A stretch of 43,007 nucleotides of DNA from Candidatus Zixiibacteriota bacterium (GTDB lineage Bacteria > Zixibacteria > MSB-5A5 > GN15 > FEB-12): contig JBFMDV010000019.1 of NCBI GenBank assembly GCA_040753875.1, positions 1 to 43,007 of the forward strand, read 5' to 3'. The notes beneath the pieces were generated by a model. It made no database searches. It saw only the letters and a program-made list of their open reading frames with translations, and was not told the DNA's origin. A program made the position numbers and the translations under genes. Numbering within the stretch: the stretch's first letter is position 1; each line of letters begins with the position of its first letter. This document shows positions 13,725-21,577 of the stretch, one piece after another.

Positions 13725-14732
13725 ATGTCCGTAACAGAAACGAAATCAGATCTTCAAGCAGTCGAACACCTGAATCAATCATACGAACGCATCCGCAAAG
13801 AGATCGGCAAGGTTATCGTTGGACAGGATAAAGTAATCGAGCAGTTGCTCATCTCGCTGTTGTCATCGGGACACTGTCTGCTTGTTGGCGTGCCAGGGCT
13901 GGCCAAGACGTTGCTGATATCAACGTTGGCGCGAGTGTTGAATCTGAAATTCAATCGTATCCAGTTCACACCGGATCTGATGCCTTCGGATATCACGGGA
14001 ACTGAGTTGATCGAAGAGGACCAGACCTCGGGGCGTCGCCAGTTCCGATTTGTTAAGGGCCCGGTGTTTGCCAATATCATTCTGGCCGATGAGATCAATC
14101 GCACGCCACCCAAAACTCAGGCGGCTCTGTTGCAGGCGATGCAGGAACACGAGGTGACCGCGGCCGGGCAGACGTACAAACTGGAAGAGCCGTTCTTCGT
14201 ACTCGCCACGCAAAACCCGATTGAACAGGAAGGGACTTACCCGCTTCCGGAAGCGCAGCTCGACCGGTTCATGTTTAACGTGTTTGTGGATTACCCGTCG
14301 ACGAACGAAGAGCAACAGATTGTGAAGTCCACCACAACGGTGCTTAGTTACGATTTGCAGAAGATACTGTCGGCTGAGGATATTGTCGGATTTCAGAGAC
14401 TGGTGCGGCGGGTGCCGGTGTCTGACCATTTGGTGGAATATGCGGTTGACCTCGTGCGGGCGACACGCCCGAAAGAGCCGCAGGCGCTGGAATTCGTGAA
14501 GAACTGGGTGAACTGGGGTGCCGGACCGAGAGCTTCGCAGTATTTGATTCTTGCGGCGAAGACAAAAGCGATTCTGGAGGGACGCCCCACGCCTGGACCT
14601 GAGGACGTGCGGTTTGCGGCGTACCCGGTGCTACGGCATCGAATCGTCACGTCGTTCAACGCCGAGGCCGATGGCGTCGACACGATGGAGATCATCAAGC
14701 GGACATTGGAGACGGTGAAGGAGAAGGCGTGA
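13725..14732 (+). CDS. MoxR-family AAA+ ATPase
   Basis: 335 residues with GGAGG seven bases before ATG. Walker A is GVPGLAKT near residue 52, Walker B is ILADEINR near 120, and the sensor 1 region reads LATQNPIEQEGTYPLPEAQLDRF, the signature of MoxR ATPases. The C-terminal lid is present. MoxR proteins act as chaperone-like ATPases together with DUF58 and von Willebrand-type proteins. The matching DUF58 gene lies 3.6 kb downstream, and several other genes intervene. The next start codon (GTG at 14729) overlaps this stop codon. Confidence 0.92.
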   Translation: MSVTETKSDLQAVEHLNQSYERIRKEIGKVIVGQDKVIEQLLISLLSSGHCLLVGVPGLAKTLLISTLARVLNLKFNRIQFTPDLMPSDITGTELIEEDQTSGRRQFRFVKGPVFANIILADEINRTPPKTQAALLQAMQEHEVTAAGQTYKLEEPFFVLATQNPIEQEGTYPLPEAQLDRFMFNVFVDYPSTNEEQQIVKSTTTVLSYDLQKILSAEDIVGFQRLVRRVPVSDHLVEYAVDLVRATRPKEPQALEFVKNWVNWGAGPRASQYLILAAKTKAILEGRPTPGPEDVRFAAYPVLRHRIVTSFNAEADGVDTMEIIKRTLETVKEKA

Positions 14733-16000
14733 AAACGAGTCACCGCATCATATTCGGCGATTCGCGAAGTATGTCGCTTGTTGGAGACAAGTCCGTTCAT
14801 CTCATAGTCACGTCGCCGCCGTACTGGCAACTCAAGGATTACGGTGCAAAGGAACAGATTGGGTTCGACGACTCGTATGAAGACTACATTAACAATCTGA
14901 ATCTAGTGTGGCTGGAGTGCCACCGAGTTCTTCACGATGGTTGTCGCCTCTGTATTAACATTGGGGACCAATTCGCACGCTCAGTTTATTACGGGAGGTA
15001 CAAGGTCATTCCGATACGAACGGAGATTACCAGGTTCTGCGAAACTGTGGGATTCGATTTCATGGGCTCGATCATTTGGCAAAAGGTCACTACCTGTAAC
15101 ACGACCGGCGGGGCGACTATCATGGGTTCATTCCCCTACCCACGCAACGGTATTGTCAAGATTGACTACGAATTCATCCTACTGTTCAAAAAACACGGCA
15201 CGGCTCCCAAGCCAACTCTCGAGGCCAGGCGGCGATCGAAGCTCACGACGGAGGAATGGAATCAGTACTTCAACGGTCACTGGAATTTCGCCGGAGAGAA
15301 ACAATCCGAACATATGGCCATGTTTCCAACGGAATTGCCTCGACGATTGATCCGCATGTTCAGTTTCGCTGGAGAGACCGTTCTTGATCCGTTCCTTGGG
15401 AGCGGAACGACGTCGCTGGCCGCAATGCGCCTGGGTAGGCAGTCAATCGGATACGAGATAAACAAGGAGTTTGAGAAACCGATCCGTTCCAAACTTCGAA
15501 GTGATTCTGATCTCTTTACGATGGGCAATGTCGTTTTTGAGGAAGACATAAGAAGAGTCCCAACAGAAGCGTTTAGGAAACTGCCATATCTTTTCGTCGA
15601 TCCATTGAAGCTTGATAAGAAGGTGGACCCGAAAAAACTGACATTCGGCTCCAAGCTGGATCGCAATACACCAGTGCGGAGTGACTTGTACAGTGTGGAG
15701 GAGATTATCTCACCGAACCTCATTCGCCTGGAAAACGATTTGATCACTCGTTTGCTGGGTGTAGCGCCGCTCAAGGACAAGGAACAAGAGGCGGTCAGTT
15801 TCTTGTCGAAAAAACTAAAGGGACAAAAGGTGTCGCTGAAGTTTGACGAATTAAAACACGATGGTGATAATCACCTCATGGTGTATATGTTTCTGAAGAA
15901 CAAAACGTTTCTGAACGCGCATTTGATAAGATACGGCCTTGCCACGTTGGATAAATCAACGCCGATTAGCAACAAGGTTCTTCTGAAGCTTGGGGGATAG
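14729..16000 (+). CDS. CTAG-type beta-class DNA methyltransferase with a degenerate SNase-like C-terminal domain
   Basis: 423 residues, GTG start coupled to moxR. The catalytic motif TSPPYW (residues 28-33) precedes the SAM motif LDPFLGSGTT (219-228), the beta-class order for N4-cytosine or N6-adenine methyltransferases. The neighbouring nuclease is of the MjaI (CTAG) family, whose partners are thought to be N4-cytosine enzymes. Residues about 325-412 resemble a staphylococcal-nuclease fold: the RLLGV strand, FLSKKLKGQKVSLKFDE and MVYMFLKNKTFLNAHLIRYG. The usual acidic catalytic residues after RLLGV are replaced (APLK), so this tail is probably non-catalytic and may bind nucleic acid. Confidence 0.85.
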   Translation: MKTSHRIIFGDSRSMSLVGDKSVHLIVTSPPYWQLKDYGAKEQIGFDDSYEDYINNLNLVWLECHRVLHDGCRLCINIGDQFARSVYYGRYKVIPIRTEITRFCETVGFDFMGSIIWQKVTTCNTTGGATIMGSFPYPRNGIVKIDYEFILLFKKHGTAPKPTLEARRRSKLTTEEWNQYFNGHWNFAGEKQSEHMAMFPTELPRRLIRMFSFAGETVLDPFLGSGTTSLAAMRLGRQSIGYEINKEFEKPIRSKLRSDSDLFTMGNVVFEEDIRRVPTEAFRKLPYLFVDPLKLDKKVDPKKLTFGSKLDRNTPVRSDLYSVEEIISPNLIRLENDLITRLLGVAPLKDKEQEAVSFLSKKLKGQKVSLKFDELKHDGDNHLMVYMFLKNKTFLNAHLIRYGLATLDKSTPISNKVLLKLGG

Positions 16001-16004
16001 CGGA

Positions 16005-16640
16005 ATGTCCAAGGAGTGGATTCTCAATTCGGCGACCAATCGTTTCCAGCTGAATTTCAAGCGTAATGTGGGCCCGACTTCCTTAAGCATACGGGCTTGC
16101 CAGCCGCGGTCACTGAAAGAGTGGGAAGAATACTACTACAAGAATGTCTACGGAAGAGAACACCTTGTAGAACTTGGCAAGAAGTTGCACGTGAAAATCA
16201 CCGAAGTCCTTGCGGCTGAGATCACCGAGGTAACCGAGCAGGATTGTATCGACTACATTATCAACCTGGTCATCAATCGGACATATGACGGCTATGTCAC
16301 CGAAATCAAGACCGTGTACGGACAGTTGCAGGAAATTCTCAGGGTTGAGATTAAGCCTGCTTCCGACGAATGGGATCGGCTGTACAATGTCGACTTCTTC
16401 ATTCCTGTGAAGGACAGGTTTATTGGTCTTCAAATCAAACCGGCGGGTGATACTGCTCATATACCACAGATATTCAAAGAGCATCAAATTCAACAGAGAA
16501 CCCACGAGGAGTTCACAGCTAAATTCGGCAGCCGTGTCTTTTATGTTGTATCGATTACAGAGGGCAAAGGGAAAAAGATCTGTAATCCTGAGGTTGTCGC
16601 CGAGATACAAGCAGAGATCGCTCGATTGGAGGCCAGATGA
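16005..16640 (+). CDS. MjaI-family type II restriction endonuclease (predicted CTAG)
   Basis: 211 residues from ATG at 16005, with GGGGGA upstream; a TTG at 15990 is less likely. The protein matches the MjaI endonuclease family: KEWILNSATNRF at the start, then LKEWEEYYYKNVYGREHLVELG, DYIINLVINRTYDGY and LYNVDFFIPVKDRFIGLQIK. D130 with Q143-I-K145 may be the metal-binding D...(E/Q)xK site of a PD-(D/E)XK fold. Family knowledge gives the specificity CTAG; the exact cut is not shown by sequence. It directly follows its methyltransferase and overlaps the next gene by ATGA, so it is part of the moxR operon. Confidence 0.85.
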   Translation: MSKEWILNSATNRFQLNFKRNVGPTSLSIRACQPRSLKEWEEYYYKNVYGREHLVELGKKLHVKITEVLAAEITEVTEQDCIDYIINLVINRTYDGYVTEIKTVYGQLQEILRVEIKPASDEWDRLYNVDFFIPVKDRFIGLQIKPAGDTAHIPQIFKEHQIQQRTHEEFTAKFGSRVFYVVSITEGKGKKICNPEVVAEIQAEIARLEAR

Positions 16641-18316: not shown

Positions 18317-19225
18317 GTGCCGATTATGAACACCGACTACCGCCGATATCTCGAACCGGAAACGGTCTCCAAACTCAAGGGGATGGAACTGCGCGCCCGC
18401 ATGGTGGTGGAGGGGTTTATCGCGGGACTGCATAAGTCACCATATCATGGCTTCTCAGTGGAATTTGCGGAACATCGCCAGTATATGCCGGGAGACAATA
18501 TCCGGGATATTGACTGGAAACTGTACGCCAAGTCGGACCGGTACTATATCAAGCAATACGAAGAGGAGACCAATCTCAAGGCGTATCTCCTGCTCGACTG
18601 CTCCCGTTCGATGGCGTACAGGTCGGCGGCACGGGTCAGCAAGCTGGATTATGCAGGTATGCTATGCGGCGCGCTGTCATACATGATGCTTCGCCAGCGC
18701 GACGCCGTGGGGCTGGTGACATTCGACCAGAAGATTCGCCGGTATATCCCGCCACGTTCCAAGAGTGGGCACCTGCATGTACTTTTGAACGAGATCGCCG
18801 GGCAGACGCCGGCCGATGTCACCGACGTTTCGGTCGCACTTCACGAGATGGCGGAGCGGATCAAACGGCGCGGGCTGGTGATTGTCATGTCCGACCTGCT
18901 GGACGATGCCGAGCGGATTGTCTCGGGGCTGAAGCATTTCCGGTACAACAAGCACGAGATTATTGTCTTTCACATTCTGGACCCGCGCGAGCGGGATTTT
19001 GCGTTCGGCCAGGAGGCGGTGTTCAAAGACATGGAGACCGGCGAAGAGATTACCACCATGCCGTATCAGATGAAGCGGGATTTCCAGAAGCAGGTGAAGG
19101 CGTTCGCGACTGAGATCGAGTCTTCCTGCCGTCAGTCCAATATCGACTATCATCCGATCGACACCAACACCCCGTTCGACAAAGCGCTGTACGCGTTTTT
19201 GGCGAAACGGGAGCGGTTGTATTAG
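18317..19225 (+). CDS. DUF58 / von Willebrand A-like protein
   Basis: 302 residues from GTG at 18317; ATG at 18326 is an alternative. It shows the DUF58 signature: LRARMVVEGFIAGLHKSPYHG, EHRQYMPGDNIRDIDWKLYAKSDRYYIKQYEEETNL, followed by LLLDCSRSMAY, a MIDAS-like DxSxS motif of a von Willebrand A fold. DUF58 proteins are usual partners of MoxR ATPases. Here the ancestral pair appears separated by the restriction-modification genes, the membrane protein and the peptidase. It is probably the last protein-coding gene of the moxR operon. Confidence 0.9.
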   Translation: MPIMNTDYRRYLEPETVSKLKGMELRARMVVEGFIAGLHKSPYHGFSVEFAEHRQYMPGDNIRDIDWKLYAKSDRYYIKQYEEETNLKAYLLLDCSRSMAYRSAARVSKLDYAGMLCGALSYMMLRQRDAVGLVTFDQKIRRYIPPRSKSGHLHVLLNEIAGQTPADVTDVSVALHEMAERIKRRGLVIVMSDLLDDAERIVSGLKHFRYNKHEIIVFHILDPRERDFAFGQEAVFKDMETGEEITTMPYQMKRDFQKQVKAFATEIESSCRQSNIDYHPIDTNTPFDKALYAFLAKRERLY

Positions 19226-19277: not shown

Positions 19278-19296
19278 CTGTTCAATACCTGAACAG
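19278..19296. promoter_or_regulatory. inverted repeat, possible enhancer site for the sigma-54 promoter
   Basis: CTGTTCAataccTGAACAG is a perfect seven-base inverted repeat with a five-base spacer. It is centred about 130 bases upstream of the predicted sigma-54 start, the usual distance for an NtrC-type activator site. It could also be a weak hairpin after the DUF58 gene, but it has no T-run. Confidence 0.4.
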
Positions 19297-19391
19297 ATTT
19301 GCACAGAGCGTTGAGGCCAAGCATGGATCAAAACTATTGCGGGCTAAGACGATAGCTTTTCTGACACTGGCAGATTTCCCTTCCCCGACAA

Positions 19392-19407
19392 TGGCACGGA
19401 CTTTGCT
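19392..19407 (+). promoter_or_regulatory. sigma-54 promoter
   Basis: TGGCACGGACTTTGCT matches the -24/-12 consensus TGGCACG-R-NNN-TTGCW at every defined position, with exactly ten bases between GG and GC. It is in intergenic DNA, 165 bases after the DUF58 stop. Transcription would start near 19418. Confidence 0.8.
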
Positions 19408-19417
19408 TTTTGGCTAG

Positions 19418-19487
19418 GTGGCATTACCGAAAGATAGTGCCAGCTAAGTTAGACCTGCCCCTGGTTGACCCCCAGGGGTTCTTTTTT
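19418..19487 (+). ncRNA. candidate sigma-54-dependent small RNA
   Basis: The predicted transcript runs from the sigma-54 start to a terminator only 70 bases later. Its 5' half folds as TGGCATTA (19419-19426) with TAGTGCCA (19435-19442) around the loop CCGAAAGA; the pairing includes one G-U pair. A single-stranded linker (GCTAAGTTAGACCT) joins it to the terminator hairpin. No reading frame of useful length is present. The family is not recognised, and no target can be named from sequence. Confidence 0.5.
19458..19487 (+). terminator. rho-independent terminator
   Basis: CCCCTGG (19458-19464), a seven-base loop, then CCAGGGG (19472-19478) and TTCTTTTTT form a strong intrinsic terminator. It would end the predicted small RNA and could also stop readthrough from the moxR-DUF58 operon. 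Confidence 0.85.
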
Positions 19488-19533: not shown

Positions 19534-19561
19534 TTGACACCCCCTTCGCCGAACCTATACG
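19534..19561 (+). promoter_or_regulatory. sigma-70-like promoter for the HEAT-cyclophilin gene
   Basis: A perfect TTGACA at 19534-19539 is followed after 16 bases by TATACG. The start site would be near 19568, leaving almost no leader before ATG at 19574, and no ribosome binding site is visible there. Translation may be nearly leaderless or begin at the downstream in-frame ATG at 19604. Confidence 0.4.
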
Positions 19562-19573
19562 TTCCCAACTGCT

Positions 19574-21577
19574 ATGAACCTGATTCTCAAACGGATAGCC
19601 CTGATGGCACTGATCGTTTTGGTAGCGGTCGGTGCATATTACTTCTATGACAAGAACCGAGTGCGTGGGCAGTCTGAAAAGCTCGCGCAAATAATTCACG
19701 ACGAGGACCGAAGGGAGTTCAGCGCTCGCCTGAAGGGGTATCTGGCTGACCCAAATGTGGAGATTCGCCGCCGGGCGGCTCTGGCGGTCGGGCGAATCGG
19801 TGATAAGCGAGGTTCAGAACTGCTGTATACCCTCGTGATGGATAGCTCGCTAGATGTGGCCGGTGCGGCCGCGTTCGCATTGGGACTTATGCAGGACCGT
19901 CGGTACGCCTCGAAACTTATTGAAGTGGCAATCGACCTGCCCGGCGCCGTTGCGGCATCGGCTGTCGAAGCGGCCGGACGTCTGACCGACAGCAGCATGA
20001 CCGAAATGCCGGACCGGATCGCGCGGTTTCTGGAGGACCCCTCACCGGAGGTGCGTGAGGCTGCCTGCAACGCGCTGTTTCTGTGCCGAGCGAAAAGCAA
20101 AGCCGCGGAACTGGTTAGTTTGGCCTCGACCGAGACGGACAGTTTAGTGAAAGAGCGGGCGCTGTACGCACTGGCTCGGATGGGGGCGCCGGAAGGGGAA
20201 CGCATTTATGTCGAGTCCCTCGCCGATGCCGACCCCGCTGTGCGAGCCTGGGCGGTGCGTGGGCTGGGGGCGGTGAGTTCGCCCGAGGCCGAGCATTATC
20301 TGGCTATCGCGCTGAACGATATCGATGCCGGTGTCGAGGCACAGGCAATTAATGCACTTGCGAGCAAAGCTTCGTCACAAACGGCCGGACATCTGGCACG
20401 GAAACTGGGAACGGTCTATGACGAGAAGATAGTTGTCGAGATTTTCAATGCCCTGCAAAAGTTGAAAAGCGACCAGGCGCAACTTTCGGCCGAGACGATA
20501 CTGTTCACCGAGCCCTCGGACAATGTCGCCGCGGCGGCGATCAAGTATTTGGCGGCGATCCAGGGGGACCGGGCGGTTAACCTGGTAGATTCAATCCTTA
20601 CCCGGAAACCATCGCCAATCATCCGCGATGCATGTGTGGAAGCGTACGGTCTTATGAACCAGCCAAGTGTGGTATCAAGGGTGGCAGTCTATTTCGGCGA
20701 TGAGGAGCCGTCGGTGCGTAACGCCGCGCTCGATGTGCTGGCGAAGCTCGACATGAACAATCTTGATTTCCATATCAACAAAGCGTTGGTCGACCCGGAC
20801 TTTTCGGTGGTGGTGAACGGCATCGAGAAGATCAAGGAGCAGAAGCTTACATCGTTCCTGCCGACACTGAAAAACCTGATGGCGAAAGGAACGTCGATAA
20901 ATCCGGATATTCGACGTTCGATAATCGAGGCGCTGCCGGTGTTTTTCAACACGCTCGGCCAGGACAGCGCGGTGGTGAGACTTCTGATCGACGGTATCCT
21001 GGACAAAGAGTACGTGGTGCGGCTGGCCGCGGCGAAAGTGTATGACGACGTTCGGCAGGAGGACCGCTACAAGCAGGTGCCACCTTCGACAACCCGAATA
21101 GCCGAGGCAGACATTCGTAAGGCATTCGACCGGTTCGCGATGCTGAACCCCTCAGCTACGATCATAACGTCCAAAGGGCCGATCGAACTCGAGCTCTTGT
21201 TCGATGTCACCCCTCTGACCGTGCTCAATTTTATGTCGCTGGCCAAGACAGGGTTCTACAACGGGCTGATATTTCATCGTGTTGTCCCGGGCTTTGTGAT
21301 CCAGGGGGGTGACCCCCGCGGTGATGGCTGGGGCGGGCCAGATTATTATATTCGCGATGAGTACAGTGAGCATCCGTACGAGCGCGGGACGGTGGGGATC
21401 GCCACCTCCGGCAAGGACACCGGAGGCTCGCAGTTTTTCATAACGGTCGCGCCCCAGCCGCATCTGAACGCCCGGTACACCGTTTTCGGAGAGGTGCTCA
21501 CGGGCATGGACATAGCCGACCAGATCGTGCCCGGTGATACGATACAGAAAATCATTATCAGAGAAGGTAAGACATGA
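19574..21577 (+). CDS. HEAT-repeat protein fused to a cyclophilin-type peptidyl-prolyl isomerase
   Basis: 667 residues. An N-terminal hydrophobic segment (about 8-25) acts as a membrane anchor or uncleaved signal. Residues about 40-500 are tandem HEAT-like helical repeats (for example VEIRRRAALAVGRIGDKRG, PEVREAACNALFLCR and PAVRAWAVRGLGAV). Residues about 525-665 are a cyclophilin domain with FHRVVPGFVIQGGDPRGDGWGG and GSQFFITVAPQPHLNARYTVFG; the catalytic Arg in FHR is present. The protein probably catalyses proline isomerisation outside the cytoplasm while its repeats bind partner proteins. It overlaps the next gene by four bases. Confidence 0.9.
   Translation: MNLILKRIALMALIVLVAVGAYYFYDKNRVRGQSEKLAQIIHDEDRREFSARLKGYLADPNVEIRRRAALAVGRIGDKRGSELLYTLVMDSSLDVAGAAAFALGLMQDRRYASKLIEVAIDLPGAVAASAVEAAGRLTDSSMTEMPDRIARFLEDPSPEVREAACNALFLCRAKSKAAELVSLASTETDSLVKERALYALARMGAPEGERIYVESLADADPAVRAWAVRGLGAVSSPEAEHYLAIALNDIDAGVEAQAINALASKASSQTAGHLARKLGTVYDEKIVVEIFNALQKLKSDQAQLSAETILFTEPSDNVAAAAIKYLAAIQGDRAVNLVDSILTRKPSPIIRDACVEAYGLMNQPSVVSRVAVYFGDEEPSVRNAALDVLAKLDMNNLDFHINKALVDPDFSVVVNGIEKIKEQKLTSFLPTLKNLMAKGTSINPDIRRSIIEALPVFFNTLGQDSAVVRLLIDGILDKEYVVRLAAAKVYDDVRQEDRYKQVPPSTTRIAEADIRKAFDRFAMLNPSATIITSKGPIELELLFDVTPLTVLNFMSLAKTGFYNGLIFHRVVPGFVIQGGDPRGDGWGGPDYYIRDEYSEHPYERGTVGIATSGKDTGGSQFFITVAPQPHLNARYTVFGEVLTGMDIADQIVPGDTIQKIIIREGKT

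What the first reader, a model, noticed from the sequence alone, without database searches (positions are those of the whole stretch)
19392..19487. Sigma-54 promoter feeding directly into a terminator: predicted small RNA of about 70 nt
The promoter matches the sigma-54 consensus at all defined positions with correct GG-N10-GC spacing. Only about 40 bases after the predicted start begins a strong intrinsic terminator. Between them lies a stable hairpin (TGGCATTA/TAGTGCCA, with a G-U pair). A seven-base inverted repeat sits about 130 bases upstream, the normal place for an NtrC-type activator. The arrangement looks like an activator-controlled regulatory RNA, as with GlmY/GlmZ-type systems, but no known family is recognised.
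Basis: partly seen in the sequence, partly recalled or inferred. Interest (0 to 1): 0.75.

Follow-up and report, generated by a model that had tools for sequence, protein, structure and literature searches.

The report
Conserved sigma-54-driven small RNA in Zixibacteria
A 71-base RNA gene with its own activator-dependent promoter and terminator is conserved across 16 genera of Zixibacteria, an uncultured phylum whose examined genomes lack the usual small-RNA helper Hfq, so it is very probably a real and undescribed regulatory RNA whose target is not yet known.

Summary
Window 19392-19487 carries a perfect -24/-12 sigma-54 promoter, a predicted start at G19417, a 5' hairpin, an 8-base single-strand motif (GTTAGACC) and an intrinsic terminator. 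A palindrome, CTGTTCA-N5-TGAACAG, lies 97 bases upstream of the -24 GG. The promoter match alone is no more than chance: 8 perfect sites in the genome against 15 for the reversed control. Comparative evidence makes the case. A covariance model finds 23 one-per-genome copies in 16 genera of one family; named matches are Candidatus Zixiibacteriota. RNA length is 70-77 nt, -24/-12 is invariant, and the GTTAGACC motif and terminator loop are conserved. The enhancer-like site was not in the model, yet recurs 93-99 bases upstream in 6 of 11 newly found copies. The RNA usually sits before a HEAT-repeat/cyclophilin gene that has its own conserved promoter. In seven genomes that gene is not adjacent, so the RNA is an independent gene, not a leader. 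No Hfq was found in 26 genomes. No Rfam family matches. Best reading: an activator-controlled, Hfq-independent trans-acting sRNA with two exposed GACC elements. Target and activator are unidentified.

The parts
19278..19296 (+). Putative upstream activating sequence, palindrome CTGTTCAATACCTGAACAG
   Evidence: Palindrome strongly enriched over reversed control in family genomes; 12/12 in 12 sRNA loci (the search selected for it), 11/12 in 6 further sRNA loci found without it in the model
19299..19303 (+). TTGCA element beside the palindrome, nearly invariant in the 19 aligned sRNA loci that keep the palindrome
   Evidence: Information 1.1-1.7 bits per base over a background of about 0.1
19392..19407 (+). 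Sigma-54 promoter -24/-12, TGGCACGGACTTTGCT
   Evidence: Sequence; GGCA and TTGC invariant in 23 loci; rpoN present in the genome
19417..19487 (+). Predicted 71-nt small RNA (start inferred from the promoter, not mapped)
   Evidence: Covariance model hit 19392-19487, 78.8 bits; relatives 70-77 nt
19419..19442 (+). 5' hairpin TGGCATTA-loop-TAGTGCCA; fold varies in sequence and position among relatives
   Evidence: Fold; no consensus pairing in 23 sequences
19448..19455 (+). Conserved motif GTTAGACC, candidate seed or binding element
   Evidence: AGACC nearly invariant in 23 loci
19457..19487 (+). Intrinsic terminator, stem CCCCTGG/CCAGGGG, loop TTGACCC (family loop YTGACCA in most), T-run
   Evidence: compensatory changes in 5 of 8 stem pairs
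19534..19561 (+). Separate sigma-70-like promoter of the downstream gene, TTGACA-N16-TATACG
   Evidence: TTGAC-N16-18-TAnnnT found after the terminator in 13 relatives
19574..21577 (+). Neighbour gene: HEAT repeats plus cyclophilin-type PPIase; not part of the sRNA unit
   Evidence: Pfam; adjacent to the sRNA in 16 of 23 loci

Best explanation
19417-19487 is an independent gene for a small non-coding RNA of about 71 nt. Shown by sequence and comparison: a sigma-54 promoter, a conserved enhancer-like palindrome about 95 bases upstream, a short RNA with a conserved GUUAGACC element, and a covarying intrinsic terminator whose loop carries a second GACC. Inferred: an NtrC-type activator, switched on by a signal, binds the palindrome and by DNA looping triggers sigma-54 polymerase, so the RNA is made in a tightly off/on manner. 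Inferred: the RNA acts in trans, without Hfq, by pairing its GACC elements (GUUAGACC and the terminator loop YUGACCA) with GGUC-containing mRNA sites. The last step is the least certain.
For: Covariance model: 23 confident hits, one per genome, 16 genera, E from about 1e-18 to 3e-8; own hit 78.8 bits. Invariant GGCA-N6-TTGC with flanks near 0.1 bit. The palindrome was not in the model but is present at 11/12, 93-99 bases upstream, in 6 of the 11 loci outside the seed alignment. RNA length 70-77 nt in all. Compensatory changes in the terminator stem. rpoN present. The downstream gene has its own promoter. The RNA persists in 7 genomes where that gene is not adjacent. Named matches are Candidatus Zixiibacteriota or GN15.
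Against: No transcript data are held. Only 23 of 54 family genomes have it, and a second model found no convincing further copies. Four copies in one genus keep the promoter but lack the palindrome. The complement GGTCTAAC shortly before an ATG is rare and showed no recurrent target. GUUAG is partly paired in several predicted folds.
Confidence: 0.82

Rival explanations
1. It is a sigma-54-driven leader of the HEAT-repeat/cyclophilin gene: the terminator is an attenuator that is read through when a signal is sensed.
For: The neighbour gene is immediately downstream in 16 of 23 loci.
Against: That gene has its own conserved TTGAC-N17-TAGATT promoter after the terminator in 13 relatives. In G004, G020, G028 and four genomes of genus g20 the RNA keeps promoter, motif and terminator although the gene is not adjacent. 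No conserved alternative (antiterminator) structure was found.
Confidence: 0.1
2. The RNA titrates an RNA-binding protein through its repeated GACC elements, as CsrB or CrcZ titrate theirs, rather than pairing with mRNA.
For: Two short conserved single-strand elements with the same core, one in the terminator loop; no conserved mRNA target found; no Hfq.
Against: Only two copies of the motif, where known sponges carry many; no protein known to bind GACC is on hand.
Confidence: 0.2
3. Chance juxtaposition of a promoter-like site and the terminator of the upstream DUF58 gene.
For: Perfect sigma-54 hexamers alone are at chance level in the genome; a terminator after a gene is ordinary.
Against: Conservation of all elements with near-fixed spacing in 16 genera, including places with different neighbours; 28 against 0 for palindrome plus promoter.
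Confidence: 0.02

Closest known systems
Pxr sRNA of Myxococcus xanthus (PMC5568312, PMC10217877)
   Same: Small RNA apparently made from a sigma-54 promoter under an NtrC-type response regulator (PxrR), with stem-loops, in bacteria without Hfq
   Different: Pxr is about 108 nt with three stem-loops and lies next to its regulator gene; here 71 nt, two hairpins, no activator gene found in the window; no sequence comparison with Pxr was made
GlmY/GlmZ (GlrR, sigma-54; PMC3844500, PMC7073468)
   Same: sRNA genes with sigma-54 promoters and an enhancer-binding activator
   Different: From general knowledge these RNAs are much longer; they work with RapZ (PMC7073468); no Rfam match here
Qrr sRNAs of Vibrio (LuxO, sigma-54), from general knowledge
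   Same: Same promoter logic: activator, sigma-54 promoter, short RNA, terminator
   Different: Qrr act with Hfq, which was not found here; no Rfam match
CrcZ/CrcY (CbrB, RpoN) of Pseudomonas and Azotobacter (PMC4063720, PMC6292655)
   Same: RpoN-dependent regulatory RNA
   Different: CrcZ is a much longer decoy for Hfq (length from general knowledge); this genome shows no Hfq

Membership tests
Sigma-54-dependent small RNA gene (functional kind) | -24/-12 promoter with GG-N10-GC, conserved | tested here: met
   Invariant in 23 loci
Sigma-54-dependent small RNA gene (functional kind) | Genome encodes sigma-54 | tested here: met
   PF04552 hit in own genome, E 4e-58
Sigma-54-dependent small RNA gene (functional kind) | Upstream activator site at about 70-150 bp | tested here: met
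   Palindrome 87-105 bases upstream of the -24 GG in 18 of 23 loci at 11/12 or better
Sigma-54-dependent small RNA gene (functional kind) | Transcript made and dependent on RpoN | not testable with these tools
   No expression data
GlmY/GlmZ, Qrr, CrcZ or any other Rfam family | Match to the Rfam covariance model | tested here: not met
   No gathering-level match in the window; best sub-threshold hit is NsiR1 at 12.7 bits against a cut-off of 39
Hfq-dependent trans-acting sRNA | Hfq in the genome | tested here: not met
   0 of 26 genomes with PF17209; controls ring
Pxr (Myxococcus) | Sequence similarity to Pxr and adjacency to pxrR | not tested
   Pxr sequence not held; no NtrC-type gene hit in the window by tblastn
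cis leader/attenuator of the downstream gene | Always attached to that gene | tested here: not met
   Not adjacent in 7 of 23 loci

The most novel reading that the evidence does not exclude
A new sRNA family of the phylum Zixibacteria that works without Hfq through two exposed GACC elements, one in the linker and one in the terminator loop, as the RNA arm of a sigma-54 regulon that shares one enhancer palindrome with a GAF-HisKA signalling gene and PEP-CTERM surface-protein genes.
Probability: 0.4. Interest if true: 0.68.

Novelty: new member of a known kind. Interest (0 to 1): 0.56.

Why it matters
The paper searches here found no small-RNA or sigma-54 work on Zixibacteria, and the genomes examined lack Hfq. 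A conserved, activator-controlled RNA gives a concrete entry point into RNA regulation there, and a second Hfq-less case beside Pxr of a sigma-54-controlled sRNA. The palindrome also gives a handle on a sigma-54 regulon in this phylum.

Tried and rejected
Rfam scans at gathering and at relaxed thresholds: no family. Activator as PrsR of PEP-CTERM systems: own genome has about 19 NtrC-like matches, none above the TIGR02915 cut-off, so not assigned. Target search with the complement GGTCTAAC followed by ATG within 20 bases in 12 genomes: few hits, no recurrent gene among the loci examined. Conserved 5' hairpin: not supported by consensus folding. The sole match clearly outside the group by DNA pattern, a Streptomyces contig, was taken as chance and not examined further. 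Borderline model hits in G003, G017, G039 and G116 were left out.

Full report
What is there. Window 19392-19487 holds TGGCACGGACTTTGCT (perfect -24/-12 sigma-54 hexamers, GG-N10-GC), a predicted start at G19417, a hairpin at 19419-19442, the sequence GTTAGACC at 19448-19455, and a terminator at 19457-19487. The fold is more stable than shuffles (z -3.6). A palindrome CTGTTCAATACCTGAACAG lies at 19278-19296. The nearest genes are a DUF58 gene ending at 19225 and a HEAT-repeat/cyclophilin gene starting at 19574.

Chance or not. The promoter match alone proves nothing: the genome has 8 perfect matches and 15 for the reversed control. The palindrome TGTTCA-N5-TGAACA is different: 45 of 54 family genomes have it, with only a handful of control matches. 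Palindrome followed at 84-112 bases by GG-N9-TGC gave 28 matches in 80 genomes and none for the control. Twelve of these are the same RNA gene.

Conservation. A DNA search of the family first showed two relatives, G028 and G026, with the palindrome at exactly the same 97-base distance. A covariance model of promoter plus RNA built from 12 sequences found 23 confident copies among 132 genomes of the class, all in the window's own family and in 16 genera, one per genome. Eleven of them were not in the seed set. Because the palindrome was not part of the model, its presence at 11/12 matches and 93-99 bases upstream in six of these eleven is independent support. One more has 9/12, and four from a single genus have none. 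In the 23 loci GGCA and TTGC of the promoter are invariant against flanks near 0.1 bit. The palindrome continues into a conserved TTGCA in the 19 loci that keep it. The RNA is 70-77 nt in all of them. AGACC and the terminator are conserved, and the terminator stem shows compensatory changes in five of eight pairs. The 5' hairpin is predicted in most but has no common pairing. A second model found no convincing copies in the other 31 family genomes, so the distribution is patchy.

Who carries it. An exact DNA pattern against a collection of 84,980 species returned ten stretches. Seven are Candidatus Zixiibacteriota or GN15 metagenome assemblies, two are unnamed bacterial assemblies, and one is a Streptomyces contig taken as chance.

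Independent gene or leader. The RNA sits directly upstream of the HEAT-repeat/cyclophilin gene in 16 of 23 loci. That gene has its own promoter after the terminator, TTGAC-N16-18-TAnnnT in 13 relatives, mostly TTGACG-N17-TAGATT, and a near version (TTGACA-N16-TATACG) here. In seven loci the gene is not adjacent, yet promoter, motif and terminator remain. This favours an independent RNA gene. A cis effect on the neighbour is not excluded where they are adjacent.

How it probably works. The genome encodes sigma-54 and about 19 NtrC-like response regulators by one family search. The same palindrome with a sigma-54 promoter also precedes a GAF-HisKA signalling gene, divergent from a gene whose start reads as purF, and genes for small PEP-CTERM proteins. 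The RNA is therefore probably one output of an activator's regulon. The activator is not identified. One lead is the NtrC-type gene at C9:32288-33619, beside whose neighbouring sigma-54 promoter lies a 10/12 match to the palindrome. The palindrome also occurs at places without a recognisable sigma-54 promoter, so it may have other uses. Hfq was not found in any of 26 genomes, so base pairing, if that is the mode, is Hfq-independent. The two exposed GACC elements are the natural candidates for pairing or protein binding. A limited target search found nothing recurrent.

Compared with the known. No Rfam family matches. In logic it is closest to Pxr of Myxococcus, which appears to be transcribed from a sigma-54 promoter, needs a sigma-54 response regulator, and occurs in bacteria without Hfq (PMC5568312, PMC10217877). 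It is less close to GlmY/GlmZ, Qrr and CrcZ. It is a new sRNA family of a known kind.

Noticed in passing
window 14729-16640: A DNA methyltransferase (N6_N4_Mtase, with a weak SNase match) and an MjaI-type restriction endonuclease gene lie between a MoxR ATPase gene and the asparaginase/DUF58 genes: a type II restriction-modification pair set into a MoxR-DUF58 cluster.
   Followed up: partly
L104:3358, L121:1934, L227:2393, L235:2791: The palindrome TGTTCA-N5-TGAACA is followed within a few bases by CTGCCGATAA, which resembles a sigma-28 -10 element, upstream of a YajC-like gene and of genes whose N-termini read as Lon-like (not domain-searched).
   Followed up: no
L200:4420, L201:5172, L202:5490, L212:2410: The palindrome lies between a purF-like gene and a divergent gene for a GAF-HisKA protein of about 255 aa that ends without an ATPase domain; in three of the four a sigma-54 promoter faces the GAF-HisKA gene.
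   Followed up: partly
G000 contig C5:168272-168286 (L006): A perfect sigma-54 promoter precedes a gene whose N-terminus reads like FlgB; a Pfam scan of the first 80 residues gave no match.
   Followed up: partly
G000 and 25 relatives: No Hfq gene was found in any of 26 genomes of this order searched.
   Followed up: yes
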